This document shows positions 1 to 10,623 of a DNA stretch of 21,954 nt, piece by piece (the first letter of the stretch is position 1; every line of letters begins with the position of its first letter). Where the stretch lies: contig QNDZ01000006.1 of assembly GCA_003646055.1 (NCBI GenBank), forward strand, positions 1-21,954, written 5' to 3'. The stretch is from a bacterium (GTDB taxonomy: Bacteria > Hydrothermota > UBA3072 > B12-G15). The notes under the pieces are model-generated. The model had not been told where the DNA came from and ran no database searches. It was given only the letters and a program-made list of their open reading frames with translations. The translations under genes and the position numbers were made by a program.

Positions 1-834
1 GAAATTTCCAGAGCCAAGGTCAAAACCAAAGTGTTCCTTTTTCTTCCTTGAATACCATGTGATGGGGGAGTCCACCACTGTCTCATATCCATACCAGTCC
101 TTTACCTGTGCAGTGAAGCCAGCGTAATAGTGCAGAAATTGGGGTTTAAGCCTGATACCGTAAATATCGGCTCCATCATTGATGGAGTTGGAGTAAAAGA
201 GCATATTTTCTCCATCTGAAAGGTAGATACCTGTATAGTCCCTTCCCAGTGAATCCCTGTATTTCCCAATATCACCTACAATGTGGAAGGGGTCATCACT
301 TTTAAGGGCGTATGTGTTGTAAAAGACACCAAGATGTGTTTTCCCGCTTCCGTAGCGTGCCTCAGCCCTCTGGAGGTATATTGAACCTGAGTACCTGAGT
401 CTTGTCCAGGCCTCAACAGAGGATAGAAACAGGTTTATGTCAAAGATAACATCAATGTCCATGAGAGAGAGGGAGTCTGTCTCATACAGCATCATCATCC
501 TGTTTACCCCACTGAATGATATGGAGGATGTGTAGGGCATGAGGACATCACCGTTTTTATTCACAACAATCACAGAGTTCTGGTATCCTCCGCTCACAAC
601 GGGATTGTCAGGGTCAGAAACCCATTCCCCGTCCACAATGTACTTGTACTCGTATCTTCCAGGTTTCAACTCTATCACAACTGTCCAGAACCCATTCTCA
701 TCCATCTCCATGGGGGTTCTTCCCCAGCCATTGAAATCACCAGCAATGAACACTGTCCTTGCATCAGGAGCAAAGTATGTGAACCTGACACCTTCATCTG
801 TGTTTATGGGAAAAAGGGCAAGTAAAAGAAGCAT
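1..834 (-). CDS. CBM48 (glycogen-binding) protein with beta-rich outer-membrane-like body, partial
   Basis: The reading frame starts at ATG 834 behind GGAGGG (RBS 6 nt upstream) and stays open to the window edge, giving 278 codons with the C-terminus missing. A very short hydrophobic leader (about residues 1-9) is followed by a CBM48/AMPK-beta-type module at about residues 14-85. It shows A-GDFNGW (W37), G-W50, LKPGRYEYKY (K64) and DGEW (W71)-SDPDNP, which are the family's starch/glycogen-contacting positions. The rest alternates aromatic and polar residues in short beta-strand-like stretches, as in an outer-membrane barrel, but I do not recognise a family. It is the last visible gene of a five-gene operon, 9 bp after the preceding stop. 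The CBM48 call is strong. The barrel reading is inference, and a downstream catalytic domain beyond the edge cannot be excluded. Confidence 0.8.
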   Translation of the reverse strand, partial: MLLLLALFPINTDEGVRFTYFAPDARTVFIAGDFNGWGRTPMEMDENGFWTVVIELKPGRYEYKYIVDGEWVSDPDNPVVSGGYQNSVIVVNKNGDVLMPYTSSISFSGVNRMMMLYETDSLSLMDIDVIFDINLFLSSVEAWTRLRYSGSIYLQRAEARYGSGKTHLGVFYNTYALKSDDPFHIVGDIGKYRDSLGRDYTGIYLSDGENMLFYSNSINDGADIYGIRLKPQFLHYYAGFTAQVKDWYGYETVVDSPITWYSRKKKEHFGFDLGSGNF

Positions 835-843
835 TTTCCCTCC

Positions 844-2148
844 TTAAAAGTAGTATTTTAGAATCAATCTGACTCTGTTCACGGTTGTAATCCCCTCCCT
901 GTCTGCAATATCACCATCATTCACCAGATCAGCATCTGTATGGGATGGTTCACCGTATTCAAGATAGATTTCAGAGTTTGATACGGGTGGCCTGTAGGCA
1001 ATCTGGAAGAATGCACTCTCCCATGCAGTGCGCTGGTCCTCACCAAAGGCAACCCTTGTGTAAAACCACATGCTTTGAGAAAGGTTCAATTTCCCTTCAA
1101 TGCCAAATATAGACCTCTGCCCAATTGAGTACTCAACATTTTTAACACCTATATCCTTGATTTTGTACTGGAATTTAAGCCTTCCTGTTTTTCCCTCTGC
1201 TACAACTTCAAAGAATGCGTGCTTCCATACATCCCCAAATCTGTCCCTTGTTACATCATAGCAGGTCTTGAAGGAGATGTTATTTACAAACTCAACATAG
1301 GCTTCAAGGTAATACCAGTACCTGTTCAGGTTTTCCCTGTATGTTTTCCCTGTGATTGTGATAGCCCTTCTTGGCAGCAGGTAAGAGATTTCTCCATATA
1401 CTCCCCGCTTACCCTGATTATCAGTCCTTGAGGAGTTATATTCATTTGAGAGTTCGTCACGGAAATTCATACCATAAGAATATGCCTTGCCAAGAATAAT
1501 GAATGGACCAAGTGGGACAATTCTGAGTTCCATTGCCCCTGCAAGATTTTCAGAATCAGGTGTATCAGGGTGATACAGGTTTTTTGCAATCTCACCCCTG
1601 AGTTCAAAGGGTCTTTTGAATAATCCAATACGTACTGAGGCTACCTCATTGAAGGAAGATACCCAGTCCTTTTTCAGGTAGAGAAGACCCCATGTGAGAA
1701 ATCCTTCATATTTTTTCAGGTCCCAGATGATTGCCTGAGCCTTCTCTGTTACAGTGTATCGTGAGAAGAGGAAGCCAGAGGCATAACCCCTTTTCCACAG
1801 GTCACATCTAACCCCTTCAGCATTGGCTCCATAGGATTCGTCCCTCACTCTTTCAGATGAAACAAGATAGAGGAGGGGAGAGTCAAACCAGTGCCTATCC
1901 TCAGCCTTGAATGTGGCGATGGAGAAGAAATTTCCCTGGAATGTGAGGTGCATTCTTTTAAACTGAATCTTACCAGGTTCAAAGGAGAGTGCTGTGTATG
2001 TTTCTGTCCTTCCAGGTAGTTTGTAAAGAAAACCCATCTCACCATAATTCTTTTCCTGATATAGATTCCAGTACTCCCATTCAGGACTGGTGTACTGGTA
2101 TTCAAACCATCCGTGAAATTCACCCAGTGAAAGAATGAGCAGAATCAT
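844..2148 (-). CDS. putative outer-membrane beta-barrel protein
   Basis: The product is about 434 aa and I do not recognise a named family. It has a short hydrophobic N-terminus (MILLILSLGEFHGW) and then many alternating amphipathic strands rich in Tyr, Trp and Phe with polar loops. It ends in LILKYYF; a terminal aromatic residue is the usual mark of a barrel assembled by BamA. Size and texture fit a 14-18-strand porin-like barrel. An upstream GTG at 2157 is in frame, but ATG 2148 forms an ATGA overlap with the stop of the preceding gene and has GGAG just upstream, so I choose 2148. Its place between a PorV-like protein and a CBM48 protein suggests a channel or surface protein for glucan handling, which is inference. 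Confidence 0.75.
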   Translation of the reverse strand: MILLILSLGEFHGWFEYQYTSPEWEYWNLYQEKNYGEMGFLYKLPGRTETYTALSFEPGKIQFKRMHLTFQGNFFSIATFKAEDRHWFDSPLLYLVSSERVRDESYGANAEGVRCDLWKRGYASGFLFSRYTVTEKAQAIIWDLKKYEGFLTWGLLYLKKDWVSSFNEVASVRIGLFKRPFELRGEIAKNLYHPDTPDSENLAGAMELRIVPLGPFIILGKAYSYGMNFRDELSNEYNSSRTDNQGKRGVYGEISYLLPRRAITITGKTYRENLNRYWYYLEAYVEFVNNISFKTCYDVTRDRFGDVWKHAFFEVVAEGKTGRLKFQYKIKDIGVKNVEYSIGQRSIFGIEGKLNLSQSMWFYTRVAFGEDQRTAWESAFFQIAYRPPVSNSEIYLEYGEPSHTDADLVNDGDIADREGITTVNRVRLILKYYF

Positions 2149-2804
2149 AGTCTCCACCCCACAGATACAATGGTTGTTTCTCCAAGGTCAGAATTCGTGA
2201 GAAAGCCCATCTCAATATCAAATCGTGGATTGTGGAGATAAAGCCCAATTGCAGGTCTCCCATTCATCCAACCGGCACTACCTGATATAACCCTGTTCAC
2301 AATGAATTCCACCCCTGCATAGAATTTTTTAAAGTCAGGGGTTGTCTCAAATGAGAGGGAGCCACCTGAGGTGATGAATCCGAACCCAAGCCTCTCCCTG
2401 CTTAATGCAAAGGCAAATCCTCTCAAAGAGAACCTTATTCCAGCATTCCAGTCATAGTTCAGTATAAATGATTTTGAGGCAGGTGCAGATTCGTACTTCT
2501 GTGAGAGTGAAACTCCAAATATACCATACTTTATACCTATTGCACTGATAACACGGGTATAACCCCTGTTTACCCGTGTTGCATTCAAGCCGAACCCAAG
2601 ATTTACCCCTTTGAGAATAAATGAGGAATAAAGGTCGCCCTTGTAAAAGTCTTCAATGTTGAAGGGTCTGTAAAAGGTGATATGAACAATTCTTTTGCTT
2701 ATGGAGGCAGGGTTTATAAAGATGTTTTCTGGCCTCTCCATCGGAGATATAGCACCACCCATTCCTGTTAGATATGCAGTTGAAGAGAGTATGAGAAGAA
2801 GCAT
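2145..2804 (-). CDS. PorV/FadL-like outer-membrane protein
   Basis: The product is 219 aa. A short leader (MLLLILSSTAYLTGMGGA) is followed by PENIFINPASIS. The NPA motif near the N-terminus is typical of the PorV/PorQ and UPF0164-type FadL-like barrels of FCB bacteria. The rest is glycine- and aromatic-rich strand repeats such as GVNLGFGLNATRVN and GIKYGIFGVSLSQKYE. PorV-type proteins of about 350-400 aa work with type IX secretion; this one is shorter and may be only a small barrel. ATG 2804 directly follows the TGA of the upstream gene (TGAATG) with no gap, and its own stop overlaps the next start by ATGA, so translation is coupled on both sides. The exact role is unknown. Confidence 0.65.
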   Translation of the reverse strand: MLLLILSSTAYLTGMGGAISPMERPENIFINPASISKRIVHITFYRPFNIEDFYKGDLYSSFILKGVNLGFGLNATRVNRGYTRVISAIGIKYGIFGVSLSQKYESAPASKSFILNYDWNAGIRFSLRGFAFALSRERLGFGFITSGGSLSFETTPDFKKFYAGVEFIVNRVISGSAGWMNGRPAIGLYLHNPRFDIEMGFLTNSDLGETTIVSVGWRL

Positions 2805-3770
2805 TCAGTACCTCACAAATGCCTTTTTCAACATTCCCCTGTTTTCAGATGTGTAGAATTTCAGGATATATATGCCTTTATCAAGGTCATGGATGTCCCA
2901 GGAGTATTCAATGAAGTCTGTTCTTAAACCTTCAATAACATTCTTTAAGAATCTTCCTTCCTCTGTGAAAAGTGCAACTGTGAGGGTTGCTGTGTCAGTG
3001 AGTTCAACATGTATTGTCACAGGACCTGTCTGTGCAATGTCAGGTCTTATATAGACACTTTTGAATTCAGGGAAGGAAACCTTATATTCCTCTGTTTTTG
3101 ATACATCTACAGGTGCAATTAGAGAATCAGGCACACCATCCCCATCACCATCAATTGTTATCTCCCTGAAGATATTTATGATAGCACTCCCGCTTCCCCT
3201 GACAGATGGGTCATCAGGCATTACATCTCCAGCACCTGCATAATCACCACCACATATGAGTGCAGTTAAAGATATTTTCTGAGGATTACCAAGCACTTCA
3301 AATGGTATGGCAACCTCAAGGAAATTCTTTTCTCCAGGACTGCCCGAATTTACACCTCTGTATGATACAGGGGATGTATTCTCACCTAATTTCCTTATAC
3401 CACCCAGGGAAAGGTCACAGTTCCAGAGTGCCACAAGGAAGTCAGGTTTTGCTCCACTGAATCTTACATCCCTTGGATACCAGTCAAGCCCATTGGCATT
3501 ATCAATCCCACCAGTCTCTGTATCAAGAAATATGAGCAGGGCATTATTATTCAGTGTATAAGAGCAACCTATAAAGAGGGTCTCTGCATTCCATGTGAGG
3601 AAGAGGGTGTCAAGTTCATTCTGGCTGCTCCAGTATGAGTCATTTGCATTGTCAATAACCACAGCCTCTTCAGGGGAGAAGTCATTCTCTCCATCAATCT
3701 GGATAGAATGGAAGGTTTCAGGGTAGAGGAGGAGTGTAAAAAGGCTACTTAATACCAAAAATTTCCTCAT
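2805..3770 (-). CDS. secreted CBM9/DOMON-like protein with C-terminal FlgD/T9SS-type domain
   Basis: The product is 321 aa with a signal peptide (MRKFLVLSSLFTLLLYPETFHS). Residues about 20-200 resemble the CBM9-like/glucodextranase C-terminal fold (IDGENDFSP at the start, LTWNAETLFIGCSY, then GLDWYPRDVRF), a beta-sandwich often attached to alpha-glucan enzymes. Near residue 208 is a calcium-binding-type DGDGDGVPD motif. About residues 240-321 form an FlgD-like Ig or sorting domain (LFTEEGRFLKNV, then YSWDIHDLDKGIYILKFYT, ending KKAFVRY), which in FCB bacteria can direct type IX secretion. ATG 3770 has AGGAGG 4 nt upstream and lies inside the end of the upstream gene (26-bp overlap). Likely an exported or cell-surface sugar-binding accessory with no catalytic motif seen. 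Confidence 0.7.
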   Translation of the reverse strand: MRKFLVLSSLFTLLLYPETFHSIQIDGENDFSPEEAVVIDNANDSYWSSQNELDTLFLTWNAETLFIGCSYTLNNNALLIFLDTETGGIDNANGLDWYPRDVRFSGAKPDFLVALWNCDLSLGGIRKLGENTSPVSYRGVNSGSPGEKNFLEVAIPFEVLGNPQKISLTALICGGDYAGAGDVMPDDPSVRGSGSAIINIFREITIDGDGDGVPDSLIAPVDVSKTEEYKVSFPEFKSVYIRPDIAQTGPVTIHVELTDTATLTVALFTEEGRFLKNVIEGLRTDFIEYSWDIHDLDKGIYILKFYTSENRGMLKKAFVRY

Positions 3771-4929
3771 TCACCCTCCTGGTGGCATCCTTGAGTGCCT
3801 GTTCAGGTGTCTTTTTCCCATAAAGGGCTGATTCTATCTCAGGATTCACAATATTCTCCACACCCTGATAATCAGGTATAATGGGTCTTGGAACAGCCTC
3901 TTTGATTGCCTCTGCAAATATCTTTATATAGGGGTGCCTCTCAAAATCTATATTCTCCATACTTTTAACATTCACAGGTAGTTGGCCAAGTTTGTTTGCC
4001 CACAGGGTCTGGATGTTTTCAGAAACGAGGAACTGGAGGAATTTAAGTGCTTCTTCAGTGTGTTTTGACCTTTTGAAAATCACCATATCCGTTCCACCAA
4101 TGGGGGTTGGCCTTCCATACCTTCCTTCTGGCACAGGGACAATCCCAAAGGGAATGTTTGCTTCCTTCAGTGATTTTATCTTCCACGGCCCATTGAAGAC
4201 CATTGCATACTTACCGTTCTGGAATCCCATATCAGGGTCAACTGCACCAGGTTTCCAGGCACCAGCCTCTATACCCTCATCATAAAGTTTCTTGATAAAC
4301 TTCAGTGCCTCAACTGCCTGAGGTGTATCAAGGGTGAACCTTCCATCCTTCATGAGCCTTGCTCCAAATCCATAGAAGAAGGGTAGATGCCACCACAGTG
4401 TGTTTCTCATGGCAAAACCATATATATTCTTGTTTTTATCCGTAAGTTTTTTACCCGCCCTAACAAACTCCTCCCATGTATCAGGTGGCTTTATCCCCTT
4501 TTCCTTGAAAAGTTTTTTGTTGTAAAAAAGGGCAAGGCAATTCACCTGGTCTGGTATGCCATATAGTTTTCCATTTATCTCAACGGATTTCAGGGCAACG
4601 GGTAACAACTCCGATGTATCAAAGTTTTCAATCTTTTTTACAGCACCCCTTGTGGCAAGTTTTGCTACCATTGCAAGGTCAACCCTTGCAATATCTGGTT
4701 CTGAGCCTGTAGCAAGTGCTGTCAGGATTTTGCTCTCCATGCCAAAGAAGGGTATCCTCTGAACCTGGACATTTATTCCTGTGGATTCCTCAAATGCCTT
4801 CACTATCTCCATGAATACAGCATGCTCTTCATCATTGTAAGATTCCCATATCGTGAGATTTTTACCTGTTTTACCTCCTCCACACCCAATAAAAACGAAC
4901 AGGGGAAGGAGCAATAAAAACTTCCTCAT
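3745..4929 (-). CDS. sugar ABC transporter substrate-binding lipoprotein (MalE/SBP family 1)
   Basis: The product is 394 aa. The leader MRKFLLLLPLFVFIGC has lipobox Cys16, so it is probably a membrane-anchored periplasmic lipoprotein. The body is a classic extracellular solute-binding protein of the maltose/oligosaccharide group: LTIWESYNDEEHAVFMEIVKAFEE, GSEPDIARVD, YGIPDQVNCLALFYNKKLF, PPDTWEEF, FQNGKYAMVFNGPWKI, IGGTDMVIFKRSK. Its length is normal for the family. An in-frame ATG nine codons upstream (4956) is rejected because it overlaps the -10 box; ATG 4929 has AAGGAGG upstream. It is the first gene of the operon. No permease or ATPase partner appears in the window, so these would lie left of the edge or elsewhere. 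The ligand is likely a malto-oligosaccharide judging from the CBM48 neighbour (inference). Confidence 0.92.
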   Translation of the reverse strand: MRKFLLLLPLFVFIGCGGGKTGKNLTIWESYNDEEHAVFMEIVKAFEESTGINVQVQRIPFFGMESKILTALATGSEPDIARVDLAMVAKLATRGAVKKIENFDTSELLPVALKSVEINGKLYGIPDQVNCLALFYNKKLFKEKGIKPPDTWEEFVRAGKKLTDKNKNIYGFAMRNTLWWHLPFFYGFGARLMKDGRFTLDTPQAVEALKFIKKLYDEGIEAGAWKPGAVDPDMGFQNGKYAMVFNGPWKIKSLKEANIPFGIVPVPEGRYGRPTPIGGTDMVIFKRSKHTEEALKFLQFLVSENIQTLWANKLGQLPVNVKSMENIDFERHPYIKIFAEAIKEAVPRPIIPDYQGVENIVNPEIESALYGKKTPEQALKDATRRVNEEIFGIK

Positions 4930-4947
4930 TCTGCCTCCTTTTTTGAA

Positions 4948-4975
4948 ATCATACACCCCACCCCATTTTTGTCAA
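4948..4975 (-). promoter_or_regulatory. sigma70-type promoter of the glucan operon
   Basis: On the minus strand TTGACA (4975-4970) and TATGAT (4953-4948) are separated by 16 bp. The predicted transcription start near 4941 leaves a leader of about a dozen bases containing only the ribosome-binding site AAGGAGG before ATG 4929. This also decides the start codon of the gene. Confidence 0.75.
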
Positions 4976-5038: not shown

Positions 5039-5188
5039 ATGTTGAACTTTGATAATATAGTCGTTCTTTTAAAAACTTGCAGCAATGTGACCACGCTCGG
5101 CTTCCACGATATTCCCTTAATGGAAACTTCGCATATGTGCCAGACATTGGATGGAATTCCCAAACCTACAATGGCGGTTGAACTATGA
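5039..5188 (+). CDS. possible 49-aa ORF coupled to the TolB-like gene
   Basis: ATG 5039 opens a 49-codon frame (begins MLNFDNIVVLLKTC, ends KPTMAVEL) whose TGA overlaps ATG 5185 of the next gene by ATGA. No Shine-Dalgarno precedes it. The predicted transcription start coincides with its first base, so it would be leaderless. The downstream lipoprotein gene also lacks a good ribosome-binding site and could depend on coupling. The sequence resembles no family I know. It could equally be a decayed gene end or untranslated leader. An 8-bp direct repeat GTTGAACT (5041-5048 and 5177-5184) brackets almost the same stretch. Confidence 0.25.
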   Translation: MLNFDNIVVLLKTCSNVTTLGFHDIPLMETSHMCQTLDGIPKPTMAVEL

Positions 5189-6258
5189 GAAAAATTGAAA
5201 GAGTAGTAAAAAATCTCTCAAAGTACATGCTAATTTATACTTTGTTAATTCTTTACCTGCTCATAGTGATTTTCAGTTCAGGGTGCCCGAAAAACCCGGA
5301 GGAACACTATATTTCTGCCCTCCCTTCTTCAGCACAGATTCTTTTTGTCTCTAACATGGATACAGGCAGTCGCACAAAGGAGATATATGCAATGGATGAT
5401 AATGGAGAGGATGTTACCCGAATTACCCATTCTCCCTATCACCATTGTATTGTTGGGATTGACAGAACAAAGAGATACATACTGGCTACAAGGGTTGTGG
5501 AAGATACGGATAGTCCCGAAGGTCTGGGGGATGAGGATAGAAAAAGTTTATGGCTTCTTGACCTTGAGACAGGGAATGAAAAAAGATTGACAGACACTTC
5601 CAATAATGCTGAAGGGGATAGTTTTTCACCTGACGGTGAGTGGATAGTATTTCATATGGTTTTAGCAGGAGAAAATCAGGCGGATATCTATAAAATGAAA
5701 ATAGATGGCTCCGGTCTTACAAGACTGACCCATACGAATGATGCCACAGAAAGTGACCCTTCCTGGTCTCCCGACGGTGAGAATATTGCATTTGTATCGT
5801 ACAGTGCCCAAGTTCCAAGATTTGTTCTTAAGATAATGGATTCTGATGGGAATAACATGAGAACAATTTATGACCCTGCTGATACTGTTGCAACTCCTTA
5901 CTTTAAGCCAGGTGTGTATGACCCTTCGTGGAGTCCAGATGGGCAATGGATTGTTTTTGAAAAACCCGTTCATTACAGTGGTGAGAATGGAGATGCTGGA
6001 ATATGGCACATTTACAAGATACATCCTGATGGAACAGGCCTTGTGGATCTCAGCAAACAGGGGGGCCATGAATCTATGGCAGAATACCTTCCTTCTTTTT
6101 CAGGAGACGGAAGACAGATTGTGTTCAGTGCAAGATATGGCTCATCAGACCCTGCCAATGTGCAGATTGATATATTCGTAATGGACGATAGTGGGAGTTC
6201 TCTCAGCAGACTAACCGATTTTGATACGATTGAAGACTTTGGGGTCTGGATAAAATGA
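5185..6258 (+). CDS. TolB-like PD40 beta-propeller lipoprotein
   Basis: The product is 357 aa. A basic N-terminus and hydrophobic segment (about 15-32) end in the lipobox IFSSGC (Cys34), predicting a lipoprotein. Repeated PD40/WD40-like blades follow: SFSPDGEWIVF, SWSPDGENIAFVS, SWSPDGQWIVF, SFSGDGRQIVF. Each is preceded by a partner strand such as IYKMKIDGSGLTRLTH, as in TolB and its DPP-IV N-terminal-like relatives. Unlike true TolB there is no separate N-terminal alpha/beta domain, and no pal, tolA or tolQR is nearby, so I do not call it TolB. The start lacks a clear Shine-Dalgarno; an internal ATG at 5227 would shorten the leader but has none either. Likely a protein- or peptidoglycan-interaction scaffold in the envelope. 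It is a tandem paralogue of the next gene. Confidence 0.85.
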   Translation: MRKIERVVKNLSKYMLIYTLLILYLLIVIFSSGCPKNPEEHYISALPSSAQILFVSNMDTGSRTKEIYAMDDNGEDVTRITHSPYHHCIVGIDRTKRYILATRVVEDTDSPEGLGDEDRKSLWLLDLETGNEKRLTDTSNNAEGDSFSPDGEWIVFHMVLAGENQADIYKMKIDGSGLTRLTHTNDATESDPSWSPDGENIAFVSYSAQVPRFVLKIMDSDGNNMRTIYDPADTVATPYFKPGVYDPSWSPDGQWIVFEKPVHYSGENGDAGIWHIYKIHPDGTGLVDLSKQGGHESMAEYLPSFSGDGRQIVFSARYGSSDPANVQIDIFVMDDSGSSLSRLTDFDTIEDFGVWIK

Positions 6259-7277
6259 AAAAGAAACTTTACTGGGTTAAAGGTATCTCCCTCACTTTTG
6301 TATTCTTCCTTGCGGGTTGTTTCCTGAGAGACAATTCAGATTTTAATGGGTTTAAAATAATATTTGAAAGTAGCAGAGATGTTCCACAGGGCGCTACTTT
6401 CCCTCAAAAATACATTGAATTATACACTATGAATCCTGATGGCTCCAATGTTATGAGGATAACAAATAACCAGTACTGGGAACACAAACCGCAGGTTTCT
6501 CCGGACGGCACAAAGATTCTTGTAACCATTCACTACTTACCAGAAAATGTAGATGAGACAGACCCTGGATGGGAAATTGCCGTGATGAATATTGATGGTT
6601 CGGGGCTTACAAAACTGACAGATAATGAATATTTTGATGGCAACGCCAGATGGAACGAAGACGGTACAAAAATAGTGTATGTATCTGATTCAAATCAAAG
6701 AACCTCTGAAGATTTAGAAAACCACCTTTTACCTCAATATGATATTTATGTAATGAATGCGGATGGAACCAATAAAACAAAGTTAACCTCTGGTGAGCCT
6801 GGTGATGTCAATGCTGACCCCTGTTTTTCTCCCGATGGGAGTATCTTTTACATCCATTCGGAGGATTATTCCAATCATTTTGATTTATGGAGAATGAATG
6901 GGGATGGTAGTGAGAAAATGCTCTTTTTCAGCCATAATGAGACAATTCAGGCTATTAATGACCCATCTGTTTCACATAATGGTGAGAGGATTGTTTTTGA
7001 AGGAAGAGTTGGGAATAATGCGGAAAGGTTACTGTATAACCTTTTTTCCTTGAATTCCAATGGCTCTGAACTTTTAAGATTGACATTAAACGATGGCGAA
7101 TCTGATATATGGCCCAGTTACTCCCCCGATAATAATTATATTGTTTACTTTACCTATGAGTGGGATGAAAACGGAGGGCATACTCAGAAAATAAGAATTG
7201 CAAAATCGGATGGGAGTGAAGAACAGGAAATTTCAAGTTTTCCATGGGAATCCTTTCCAGGCTGGTTTGAAAAATAA
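6255..7277 (+). CDS. TolB-like PD40 beta-propeller lipoprotein, second copy
   Basis: The product is 340 aa. The signal ends FVFFLAGC (lipobox). PD40 blades are visible at QVSPDGTKILVT, RWNEDGTKIVYVS, CFSPDGSIFYIHS, SVSHNGERIVFEG and SYSPDNNYIVYFT, with linkers like YVMNADGTNKTKLTSGEPG. The start overlaps the previous stop by ATGA, so the pair is translated together. The two proteins share architecture but have diverged, consistent with an old duplication. Degenerate blades (SHNG, SPDN, NED in place of SPDG) may mark surfaces specialised for partners. The partner is unknown. Confidence 0.85.
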   Translation: MKKKLYWVKGISLTFVFFLAGCFLRDNSDFNGFKIIFESSRDVPQGATFPQKYIELYTMNPDGSNVMRITNNQYWEHKPQVSPDGTKILVTIHYLPENVDETDPGWEIAVMNIDGSGLTKLTDNEYFDGNARWNEDGTKIVYVSDSNQRTSEDLENHLLPQYDIYVMNADGTNKTKLTSGEPGDVNADPCFSPDGSIFYIHSEDYSNHFDLWRMNGDGSEKMLFFSHNETIQAINDPSVSHNGERIVFEGRVGNNAERLLYNLFSLNSNGSELLRLTLNDGESDIWPSYSPDNNYIVYFTYEWDENGGHTQKIRIAKSDGSEEQEISSFPWESFPGWFEK

Positions 7278-7333: not shown

Positions 7334-7936
7334 ATGGATATGGACAGAGAACAAAGAGAATTTATGGACAAAAAGCACGAGGTAATGGATAGATTTTATG
7401 ATTTATGCGAGCAGTATAATGGGAGCAATGCGAAATTCATAAAAAGGCGAGTGAAACAGTTGATTGAGGAGGACCCTGATTTTTTAGATTCGTACTTGTT
7501 ACTCTATGAGATACTAAAGAATGAGGGTAATTCCTCTGAGGCAGAAAGGGTATTGAATGATGCATATGAGAGAGCGCTGAGATTGATAACCGATGAAAAT
7601 GGCAACTGGCCAGATAGATTATCCTGGGGTTGGCTGGAAAATAGACATATCATAAGAACCATTTTGAATAAGGCTATTTTATTATGGGAAAAAAGAAAGG
7701 TAGATGAGGCCCTGGATTTATTAAGAAAATTGCTAAAAACAAATCCGGGTGACAATGTTGGAGCACGCTTTTATATACTGGCAATTAGAATGAATATGAC
7801 CCTTGAAGAATTTGAAAGACGCTTTGACAGGGGTGGTTATTACGATATGGATTTGTCTCACTGGTTTGATGAGAATTATAAAAGATTTGATGATGAATTT
7901 GGCTGGTGGGAAAAGGCCATAGAAGAATATATGTAA
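7334..7936 (+). CDS. TPR-family protein (200 aa)
   Basis: ATG 7334 follows GGAGGG (7321-7326); another ATG at 7329 is out of frame. There is no signal peptide, so it is cytoplasmic. The sequence is helical with TPR-like segments (FLDSYLLLYEILKNEGNSSEAERVLNDAYERAL and KVDEALDLLRKLLKTNPGDNVGARFYILAIRM). The motif NWPDRLSWGWLENRHIIR in the middle and the end EEFERRFDRGGYYDMD are, as I recall, shared by a scattered family of small bacterial TPR proteins of unknown function. It sits 56 bp after the TolB-like pair with no terminator seen, so it may be cotranscribed with them. Confidence 0.8.
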   Translation: MDMDREQREFMDKKHEVMDRFYDLCEQYNGSNAKFIKRRVKQLIEEDPDFLDSYLLLYEILKNEGNSSEAERVLNDAYERALRLITDENGNWPDRLSWGWLENRHIIRTILNKAILLWEKRKVDEALDLLRKLLKTNPGDNVGARFYILAIRMNMTLEEFERRFDRGGYYDMDLSHWFDENYKRFDDEFGWWEKAIEEYM

Positions 7937-8166: not shown

Positions 8167-10623
8167 TTATTTGATTACAATGAATTTATGTCTTTCCGTG
8201 AGTTCACCCTGATTTAATTTTATAAAATATATACCAGGGGGAAGGGAGCCGATTATGTAGTTACCAGGTCTGACCTCAGAATACACTTTTATAACACGAC
8301 CACTGATGTCATAGATGTAAATACTGATATCAACACTGCTGTTTACAGAGAACTTTATGTTCTTCCCAATAGAGGAAATAAACCTAATAGATGGTCCGGG
8401 ATTGCCCAGATATGTATATGCCTGTGATGTAGTCTGAATGGAGTCAGTTGGATTGAATCCATAGGTTGAGCCACCCATGTAGTAAAGCCCATCAATTCCA
8501 CCGAAGCCTGTTATTGAGCCTCCATCTCCCCTGAAAACAGCATATGGCATTTTCCCTGTTTTTATCCAGGTGTTGGAAAGGGCATCATAAAAATATCCGT
8601 AATCAAGTGGTGTGTAAGTTTCATCGCAACCACCCAGGATGTAAAAAGTATCTTTGTAAACTGTGGATGCACTCCCCCATATTTTTTGAGGAAGTTTTGC
8701 AAAATCAGAAGTGTTGCATATCCATGTGTTGGTGGAGATTAGATAAAATGCGGTAGAATCAATGGGGTTTGTGCCATCATATCCGCCACCTATGAATATG
8801 GTGTCATTTAATGACCAGTGTGCCATGAGTTCAACCGGGTAGGGTATATCACTCTTTTTTGTCCATGTGTCTGCCTGTGGGTCATACTCCCATGTAGATT
8901 TATATGCTGTACCTGTTGTATTATTGTATCCCCCAAATTTGTACAGTTTACCATTCACAGCTTCACATCCATAAAACCATACAGCCTCCCCTGTACCAGG
9001 TGAAGAAGACCAGTTGTTCCCTGAAATGGAATACTTGAATAGGGTATCTAAAATGGAGTCCAGAGAATAAGAATAACCTCCAGGAATGTAAATTGTGTCA
9101 CCAATCAGTGCAGCGTCAAACATGCAGATATCAACAGGAATAGGCGCACCGGTTGTCCATGTGCCTGCATCCATATTATAAATATATAATTCTGAATGGG
9201 ATGTAAATCCGTCATATCCACCCAGCAGGTAAATAACATTTCCATTTGTTACAACTGCATGGTCCATATCAGGATATGGTAAAGAGTCGCTGAACATATG
9301 CCAGTTTGTGCAAATTATAGTTTTTGATATCGTGTCATTCAGAGGATTTATGTCATCGGGCTGGATAGAGTATGAAAGGAGCGTAAATATGCCATAGTTG
9401 GAGGAACTCCAATTCCCAAAATCAATATCATAAAAATTACCAGGTGTGATCTGGATAGATGTATCACAAACGAAACTGTCATCAAGCATCTCTGTATGGA
9501 ACCACGAAGTATAAGTCCATGAATCTGCATCTGCAGTATCTGAATGGTATTTTACAATTACGGGATATACCTCGTCCTTTGAAACAACTTCAGGTGGCGA
9601 GATGATTGAATCAGCCTTGAGGTCTATATCAAGTTTAATTATTTCTGTAATGGAATTATTCCCTGGGGTTGAGTCCTGGGTGGTTATTGTGACCGTATAT
9701 TTAAGAACATGTGGGTCAAGTTGCGAAATAGTGCAATCACCAAAGTTCAGGTCCAGTATACTGTCAGGGGGAAGAGAGTAAACAGTGGTATCTTTTTCAA
9801 AGAGAATACCCGTTCCTCCTGTATCAGTTATTTCTGTGTGAACACCAAATGTGAATGTTGAATCCCCTGTATTTTTTATTCTTGCAATAACAGGATAATT
9901 AATGGGTGAAAAATATTGAGGAGGAGACAAAAGGTCTGAAACTGCAGCGTCGTACATTCCTCCTTCTGTAAATCCAAGAAGTTGAACATTGTCCACACCA
10001 TAAGCCCAATCCCATGTTTTTGTGGATTCTACCCAGACAAAGTTGACCTGGATTGATTCTGCAGGTAAAAATGATGATAGGTCAAGGGTGTCAACAAGGC
10101 TTGTATCACTTGTGTATATAACCAGGATATTCCAGTTTTGCCATAAATTGTCTTTGAAAAATCTTGCCCACACCTGGCCAGATGAATTGAAAGAACGAAA
10201 ATTAAAACCAACGCTGTAAATCAAAACGAGGCTGTCAAATTCTGATATACAAAGAGAGGGTGTTCTTAGTTTTTCATCACCGGGAGGAGCACTTGAAGAG
10301 GCATCATCATCCGAGTAATAAGCATAGGCTGTTCCAAAATCAGGGGGTTCATAGGAAGATAGGTCTTCCGTAGTTCCAGTAGTCCAGGTTGCACCATCTC
10401 CATTTTCATCAAACACATGCCAACCACTTGGAATACCCGTTTCAAAGTCAGCAAAAAGAATAGTACTCCATGGTCCTTTGGTCAGGTCAACAGACCTCTT
10501 TACCATTAAAGCATAGAAAGGGAAACCGTGATGAATTAAGTCTGGCTTGAAGTCCCCTTCACCTTTACCAGTGTTTATACCAGCATAATTTGAAATTGAC
10601 AAAATTATAAAAACGTAAAACAT
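8167..10623 (-). CDS. secreted six-kelch-repeat protein with T9SS-type C-terminal sorting domain
   Basis: The product is 818 aa with a short signal peptide (MFYVFIILSISNYAGIN). About residues 55-215 resemble a cleaved-adhesin/MAM-like jelly-roll (FADFETGIPSGWHVFDENGDGATWT, then DWAYGVDNVQLLGF). About 220-450 hold two CARDB/Ig-like domains (VSDLLSPPQYFSPINYPVIARIKNTG). About 455-740 carry six kelch repeats with GG doublets and spaced W/Y (VIYLLGGYDG, TIYIPGGYS, KLYKFGGYN, TIFIGGGYDG, FYILGGCDE, LYYMGGSTYG), enough for a closed propeller. The last 75 residues form a type A sorting-like domain (IYIYDISGRVIKVY, SLPPGIYFIKLNQG, ending KFIVIK). Likely exported and surface-attached or released; binding target unknown. 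It stands alone behind its own promoter and converges with the TPR genes. Confidence 0.85.
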   Translation of the reverse strand: MFYVFIILSISNYAGINTGKGEGDFKPDLIHHGFPFYALMVKRSVDLTKGPWSTILFADFETGIPSGWHVFDENGDGATWTTGTTEDLSSYEPPDFGTAYAYYSDDDASSSAPPGDEKLRTPSLCISEFDSLVLIYSVGFNFRSFNSSGQVWARFFKDNLWQNWNILVIYTSDTSLVDTLDLSSFLPAESIQVNFVWVESTKTWDWAYGVDNVQLLGFTEGGMYDAAVSDLLSPPQYFSPINYPVIARIKNTGDSTFTFGVHTEITDTGGTGILFEKDTTVYSLPPDSILDLNFGDCTISQLDPHVLKYTVTITTQDSTPGNNSITEIIKLDIDLKADSIISPPEVVSKDEVYPVIVKYHSDTADADSWTYTSWFHTEMLDDSFVCDTSIQITPGNFYDIDFGNWSSSNYGIFTLLSYSIQPDDINPLNDTISKTIICTNWHMFSDSLPYPDMDHAVVTNGNVIYLLGGYDGFTSHSELYIYNMDAGTWTTGAPIPVDICMFDAALIGDTIYIPGGYSYSLDSILDTLFKYSISGNNWSSSPGTGEAVWFYGCEAVNGKLYKFGGYNNTTGTAYKSTWEYDPQADTWTKKSDIPYPVELMAHWSLNDTIFIGGGYDGTNPIDSTAFYLISTNTWICNTSDFAKLPQKIWGSASTVYKDTFYILGGCDETYTPLDYGYFYDALSNTWIKTGKMPYAVFRGDGGSITGFGGIDGLYYMGGSTYGFNPTDSIQTTSQAYTYLGNPGPSIRFISSIGKNIKFSVNSSVDISIYIYDISGRVIKVYSEVRPGNYIIGSLPPGIYFIKLNQGELTERHKFIVIK

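What the first reader, a model, noticed from the sequence alone, without database searches (positions are those of the whole stretch)
1..4975. Compact glucan-capture operon of unusual composition
One promoter drives five overlapping genes: an SBP1 lipoprotein, a CBM9-like protein with sorting-type tail, a PorV-like protein, a large barrel-like protein, and a protein fusing CBM48 to a beta-rich body. SBP and CBM48 are established sugar/alpha-glucan families. Finding them tied to two outer-membrane-type proteins, with no SusC/SusD, suggests an alternative outer-membrane route for starch or glycogen fragments feeding an ABC importer. The periplasmic and surface halves being cotranscribed is seen directly; the uptake role is inference.
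Basis: partly seen in the sequence, partly recalled or inferred. Interest (0 to 1): 0.7.

Follow-up and report, generated by a model that had tools for sequence, protein, structure and literature searches.

The report
Starch-uptake operon with sugar-binding outer-membrane barrels
An uncultured WOR-3 bacterium carries an operon that joins a maltose-type sugar-binding protein with predicted outer-membrane pores, one of them tipped with a starch/glycogen-binding domain, and related genomes keep these parts together with likely starch-degrading enzymes, which points to a starch uptake route built from pores unlike the textbook ones.

Summary
The operon is real but cut by the contig end. In a WOR-3 MAG it reads: MalE-like lipoprotein, 321-aa and 219-aa secreted proteins, a large barrel, a CBM48 protein. 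The CBM48 gene continues on contig C154 (exact 123-bp overlap; 544 aa), followed by a 131-aa CBM48 lipoprotein, a subtilase and one more gene. The large protein and a full-length CBM48 homologue are predicted outer-membrane barrels (about 22-23 and 22 strands); the CBM48 keeps AMPK-type glycogen-contact residues. The barrel occurs in 21 of 147 phylum genomes; 20 of the 21 have the CBM48-barrel and 19 a GH57-like protein, whereas the other 126 show no match to the CBM48 protein's body and at most 24.7 bits to the GH57-like one. The SBP-first order recurs in 4 of 20 relative loci. In family f18 the GH57-like gene lies between the barrels, with MalF/MalG-type permeases nearby in the two genomes where visible. 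The glucan reading is strengthened. 'PorV-like' and 'CBM9-like' found no profile support; TonB plug domains occur in all 147 genomes; SusD was not searched genome-wide. Substrate, direction and sidedness are inferred. Most likely an alpha-glucan utilisation locus with outer-membrane parts unlike SusCD or LamB.

The parts
4948..4975 (-). sigma70-like promoter candidate (TTGACA-16-TATGAT)
   Evidence: 11 of 12 consensus positions; would leave only about 12 nt of leader before the ATG (read); not tested
3745..4929 (-). MalE-type solute-binding lipoprotein (394 aa from ATG; lipobox FIGC by eye)
   Evidence: PF13416 7.2e-49; NCBIfam PRK09474 MalE 1.4e-31 but 109.7 of 291 bits; PDB 9xf5, GacH, Thermotoga MalE; 47-49% to two f18 SBPs, 25% to the second SBP of the genome
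2805..3770 (-). secreted 321-aa protein, CBM9/DOMON-like by eye only, weak type IX sorting tail
   Evidence: no CBM9 HMM hit; 35% to the f18 G038 protein, 30% over 216 aa to a lipoprotein downstream of the barrel pair in G018
2145..2804 (-).
   Evidence: no meaningful Pfam, NCBIfam or PDB hit; 19-25% identity to positional counterparts; no structure predicted
844..2157 (-). large predicted outer-membrane beta-barrel, about 22-23 strands, no plug domain hit
   Evidence: model m5d2a7d33445a pLDDT 74.6; usher pores PapC/FimD, OprD/Occ, AlgE among the nearest folds; 21 of 147 genomes
1..834 (-). N-terminal half of the CBM48 plus barrel protein (544 aa in full; the rest is on contig G000:C154)
   Evidence: PF16561/PF02922; 123-bp exact overlap with C154; homologue P0050 (32% identical over the window part) modelled: pLDDT 80.4, 22 long strands in 118-615 by my count

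Best explanation
This is an alpha-glucan (starch, glycogen or maltodextrin) utilisation operon of a WOR-3 bacterium. Its outer-membrane parts are not recognisable as SusCD or LamB. Proposed mechanism: secreted GH57-type proteins, encoded elsewhere in this genome and inside the locus in family f18, cut the glucan at or outside the cell surface. A small CBM48 lipoprotein, and possibly the 321-aa protein, hold the chain. Fragments pass through two large barrels; the N-terminal CBM48 of one would sit at the periplasmic mouth and bind arriving glucan. The MalE-like lipoprotein then hands oligosaccharides to a MalFG-type importer. Shown: gene order, domains, conserved binding residues, predicted barrel folds, co-occurrence. 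Inferred: cotranscription, substrate, direction, sidedness, channel function, and pairing with a particular permease.
For: CBM48 contact positions W, K, W, N (aligned to AMPK-beta1) are kept in 16 of 16 A2 rows, in 5 barrel proteins from loci (one of them the window's own again) and in 4 of 4 lipoproteins, the third W being Y in two sequences. The small CBM48 lipoprotein is 59-71% identical across four families, against 24-33% for the CBM48-barrels. In 147 genomes: barrel in 21; CBM48-barrel in 20 of these 21 (G001 is cut by its contig end, G009 rests); GH57-like in 19 of 21 at 655 bits or more, at most 24.7 bits in the other 126. Among 16 GH57-like members CBM_21 matches 5 and GH57 2 (best E 1.1e-5 and 0.0015). 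f18 loci place the GH57-like gene between the barrels, with permeases nearby in G038 and G034. In f29 genome G070 a MalG-type permease lies 1.3 kb from the CBM48-barrel. The window's genome has a CBM48-GH57 gene on C204.
Against: SBP beside the barrel in only 4 of 20 relative loci. In four f29 genomes a WD40-type protein follows the barrel instead, so the barrel may not be glucan-specific. The GH57 call on the 1024-aa protein is weak: no PDB hit, hhalign probability 2.8% against a mixed GH57 set, best non-self hmmsearch hit only E 0.035. The only permease pair found in the window's genome is on another contig, beside genes not linked to glucans, and is only 30-38% like those of f18/f29. Nearest folds include exporters (AlgE, ushers), with low Foldseek TM-scores. 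GH57 itself is common in the phylum (82 of 147 genomes). The first cultured WOR-3 strain, sy37, did not grow on the tested substrates, whose list includes starch and maltose (PMC12285271; passages and section 6 read); whether it carries this locus was not tested.
Confidence: 0.6

Rival explanations
1. Export or display of the cell's own alpha-glucan: the barrels secrete or anchor an extracellular glucan, CBM48 modules hold it, and GH57-type enzymes remodel it.
For: AlgE, an alginate exporter, heads the Foldseek list of the CBM48-barrel and is among the nearest folds of the other barrel. In three of five f8 loci the barrel lies downstream of trehalose-phosphate synthase and TreT-type genes, identified by Pfam in G013 and by look-alike N-termini in the other two.
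Against: A MalE-type SBP in the gene row and MalFG-type genes nearby in f18 and f29 are import parts. No glucan synthase or polymerase was recognised among the operon proteins scanned.
Confidence: 0.15
2. Uptake of trehalose or another small sugar rather than starch; the CBM48 modules are structural.
For: Trehalose genes beside three f8 loci; the PDB relatives of the SBP include a trehalose/maltose binding protein.
Against: Polymer-binding residues kept in the sequences aligned; the GH57-like protein with CBM_21 matches co-occurs with the barrels.
Confidence: 0.1
3. An envelope scaffold or secretion-linked set (type IX-like): the CBM48 fold serves as a protein-binding beta-sandwich.
For: Weak NCBIfam hit of the CBM48 region to T9SS_plug (0.0024, 17 bits against a cutoff of 100); weak sorting tails in the operon and near it.
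Against: Six genomes without the barrel (G035, G037, G079, G091, G097, G099) match the GH57-like protein only in its last 100 or so residues, where the sorting tail lies, so sorting tails do not track the barrel. AMPK-type glycogen contacts are kept.
Confidence: 0.1

Closest known systems
Bacteroidota starch utilisation system (SusCD-EFG) and PULs
   Same: A locus joining outer-membrane proteins, glucan-binding lipoproteins and alpha-glucan enzymes (Sus composition recalled).
   Different: No SusC- or SusD-type hit in the gene row; the CBM48 is fused to a barrel without a plug hit; import would run through an ABC-type SBP. TonB plug domains exist elsewhere in the genome.
E. coli LamB/MalEFGK maltodextrin system (recalled)
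   Same: Outer-membrane pore plus MalE-type SBP plus MalFG-type permeases (relatives).
   Different: Two barrels of about 22-23 predicted strands, no sequence match of the large barrel to PDB chains, a CBM48 fusion, GH57-type rather than GH13 enzymes.
TonB-dependent transporters (Fiu, BtuB, BT1762)
   Different: No Plug hit in the proteins scanned; the N-terminal domain is a CBM48.
AMPK-beta/isoamylase-type CBM48
   Same: Sequence match 3.7e-13 and kept contact residues.
   Different: Here on a predicted outer-membrane barrel and on a small lipoprotein, not on a kinase subunit or amylase; the L146 position is Y or F.

Membership tests
CBM48 (PF02922/PF16561) | Profile match above curated cutoff | tested here: met
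   48.5 and 57.7 bits against cutoffs 22.4 and 26.8; lipoprotein 33.7 and 38.0
CBM48 (PF02922/PF16561) | Glycogen contact residues W100, K126, W133, N150 of AMPK-beta1 (choice and numbers recalled) | tested here: met
   third position Y in two sequences; L146 replaced by Y or F
Outer-membrane beta-barrel | Predicted antiparallel barrel with porin-like fold matches | tested here: met
TonB-dependent transporter / SusC | Plug domain PF07715 | tested here: not met
   no hit in the window proteins or in three full-length CBM48-barrels scanned
SusD-type system | SusD lipoprotein in the gene row | tested here: not met
   no SusD Pfam hit among the operon proteins on window and C154; genome-wide not tested
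MalE-type SBP | SBP_bac_1/8 match and maltose-family nearest relatives | tested here: met
   below the NCBIfam MalE cutoff; ligand not testable here
LamB maltoporin | Sequence or fold match to LamB | tested here: inconclusive
   no PDB sequence hit; LamB chains appear lower among many barrels
PorV | Profile match to a PorV or FadL-type family | tested here: inconclusive
   no such Pfam or NCBIfam hit for the 219-aa protein; fold not predicted
CBM9 | Profile match to CBM9 | tested here: inconclusive
   no CBM9 hit for any of 7 family members or in PDB
GH57 (the 1024-aa co-occurring protein) | PF03065 match and catalytic motifs | tested here: inconclusive
   2 of 16 members, best 0.0015; 4 of the 5 best non-self hits among 365 ORFs are GH57 genes, none significant and other GH57 genes rank low or are missing; hhalign fails; motif reading recalled

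The most novel reading that the evidence does not exclude
A plug-less, 22-strand outer-membrane transporter in which a glycogen-binding CBM48 takes the place of the TonB plug, binding alpha-glucan at the inner mouth of the pore and feeding a MalE-type ABC importer: a third kind of outer-membrane starch route beside LamB and SusCD.
Probability: 0.3. Interest if true: 0.75.

Novelty: new variant of a known kind. Interest (0 to 1): 0.55.

Why it matters
How starch-sized sugars cross the outer membrane is known mainly for LamB and SusCD (recalled). A set of CBM48-bearing barrels that travels with likely glucan enzymes and, in some families, MalE/MalFG-type parts, in a phylum with hardly any cultures, would offer a testable further solution. 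It also gives a function hypothesis to two barrel bodies that match no Pfam barrel family in the scans made here.

Tried and rejected
Rejected: the CBM48 protein as a truncated GlgB/GH13 enzyme. The three full-length homologues scanned show CBM48 and no catalytic domain, the model shows a barrel, and no PF00128 was found in the genome.

Rejected as too wide: 'no SusC'. PF07715 is in 147 of 147 genomes.

Led nowhere: the homologue search with the truncated CBM48 protein gave 31 hits; the 11 whose sequences I read look like multi-CBM48 proteins without this body. The genome-contig scan gave one locus, the sister MAG AUK059. Profile comparison of the GH57-like domain with a mixed GH57 set failed. 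PDB searches with the GH57-like, barrel, CBM9-like and 219-aa profiles and with one CBM9-like lipoprotein gave nothing useful.

Papers: seven searches after or around this question listed no paper whose title or shown abstract start describes a CBM48 outer-membrane barrel. I read only PMC12285271 (abstract and outline, found passages, section 6); the rest are listings, so absence from print is not shown.

Choices that narrow the alignments: A1 used the window and 13 of 14 hits (P0032, 99% identical, left out). A2 used the window piece and 15 of the 120 listed hits (289 in all). A4 used 16 GH57-like proteins; partial ones and further copies were left out. A5 used 7 and A6 4 proteins. No row of A2, A4, A5 or A6 was chosen at random.

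In fold searches, families missing from the lists are not thereby excluded. The pair of permeases on C138 as partner of this SBP was considered and left open.
Full report
WHERE IT IS. The window is the whole contig C6 of a 1.87-Mb, 80.6%-complete genome. A sister genome carries the same five genes at 95-97% identity (L024); a contig of the same length and match is named 'candidate division WOR-3 bacterium isolate AUK059' (L044).

THE OPERON. Five minus-strand genes lie head to tail: SBP 4929-3745, 321 aa 3770-2805, 219 aa 2804-2145, 437 aa 2157-844, CBM48 protein 834-1. Neighbours overlap, abut or lie 9 bp apart, and ribosome-site-like stretches precede the SBP and the CBM48 gene. The CBM48 gene is cut by the contig end. 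Contig C154 ends with an exact 123-bp copy of the window's first bases; read across, the gene is 544 aa. Three more genes follow with two 4-bp overlaps and a 24-bp gap: a 131-aa CBM48 lipoprotein, a subtilase (PF00082 1.5e-51) and a 516-aa protein with a sub-threshold sorting tail. So this is probably an operon of at least eight genes; cotranscription is inferred from spacing.

CONSERVATION. The barrel was found in 21 of 150 genomes and 21 of 147, the same handles, the window's own included. Of the 20 relative loci, the CBM48-barrel lies downstream of the barrel in 16, in three of them (f18) after one intervening gene; the other four, all family f29, have a WD40-type protein there (Pfam for one of them). 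The SBP precedes in 4 of 20 (G001 and the three f18 genomes); a relative of the 321-aa protein is near in 14 of 20. The small CBM48 lipoprotein follows the CBM48-barrel directly in 12 of 20 (f8, f21, f23 and G009), as in the window's genome. In f29 genome G070 the CBM48-barrel and lipoprotein sit together elsewhere, 1.3 kb from a MalG-type permease.

CO-OCCURRENCE. Among 147 genomes, 20 of the 21 barrel genomes have the CBM48-barrel; G109, 80% complete, has only a CBM48 fragment in a 155-aa frame. G001 is known only up to its contig end, and for G009 the profile matched only the CBM48 part while BLAST gave 27% over 498 columns. The other 17 genomes with matches match only the CBM48 part, up to profile position 108 of 615. 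The 1024-aa GH57-like protein is strong (at least 655 bits) in 19 of 21; G101 has no match, G109 only a 28-residue stretch. In the other 126 the best is 24.7 bits. The genomes are not independent: the 21 fall into 7 families and 10 of 79 genera, so I give no p-value. f18 genome G061, 96% complete, is absent from the match lists of all three searches (completeness).

ENZYMES. The 1024-aa protein's relatives lie between the two barrels in f18; its own gene is on C21 in the window's genome. Of 16 members, 9 match a sorting tail, 5 CBM_21 and 2 GH57, all weakly. A motif set resembling GH57 (recalled) is nearly invariant, but PDB and profile comparison failed. A canonical CBM48-GH57 gene is on C204 of the window's genome and about 5 kb downstream of the CBM48-barrel in G038. 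GH57 as such is widespread (82 of 147). No GH13 was found in the window's genome, which is 80.6% complete.

PERMEASES. f18: MalF/MalG-type genes in G038 and G034; in G058 the contig ends. Window's genome: one pair, the second gene cut, on C138. It is 30-38% like those of f18 and f29, while the SBPs are 47-49% alike, so it may belong to the second SBP (C163).

MECHANISM. Best reading: alpha-glucan cleavage outside, capture by the CBM48 lipoprotein, passage through large barrels with a periplasmic CBM48, hand-over to the MalE-type SBP. Shown are domains, order, folds by prediction and co-occurrence; transport, direction and substrate are inferred. Export or display of the cell's own glucan is the main rival.

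NOVELTY. It would work like a Sus or Mal system but is a member of neither by the features tested. I rate it a new variant of a known kind (sugar-utilisation locus) with outer-membrane parts not recognisable as those of the known systems.

Noticed in passing
window 5185-7277: Two tandem PD40 beta-propeller genes stand between the operon and a TPR gene (7334-7936). In the sister genome (L024) the TPR gene is followed within about 250 bp by the SBP, so the pair is absent there.
   Followed up: partly
L040 7413-9209; also L027, L037, L039 (family f29): The barrel gene is followed by a WD40-repeat protein instead of the CBM48-barrel (Pfam scanned for L040 only; the others by look-alike start): a possible second use of the same pore.
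   Followed up: partly
L026 3190-5394 and 6028-7254; look-alikes in L028, L030: Trehalose-phosphate synthase/phosphatase fusion and TreT-type synthase upstream of the barrel in three f8 genomes.
   Followed up: partly
L047 3289-3684: The 131-aa CBM48 lipoprotein is 59-71% identical between four families while the CBM48-barrels are 24-33% identical: unusually strong constraint on a small binding protein.
   Followed up: partly
L029 13392-14777; counterparts in L026, L032, L035 and others: Lipoprotein downstream of the module with a GDFxGW-type N-terminal domain, a carboxypeptidase-regulatory-like domain and the CBM9-like region of the window's 321-aa protein; SusE/F-like in layout by recall, no SusE/F hit.
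   Followed up: partly
window 8167-10623: Kelch-repeat protein with a sub-threshold type IX sorting tail (1.3e-5).
   Followed up: no
L054 11907-13202 (G000:C21): MGH1-like/GH63-type glycosidase (PF22422 1.3e-62) about 6 kb from the GH57-like gene.
   Followed up: no
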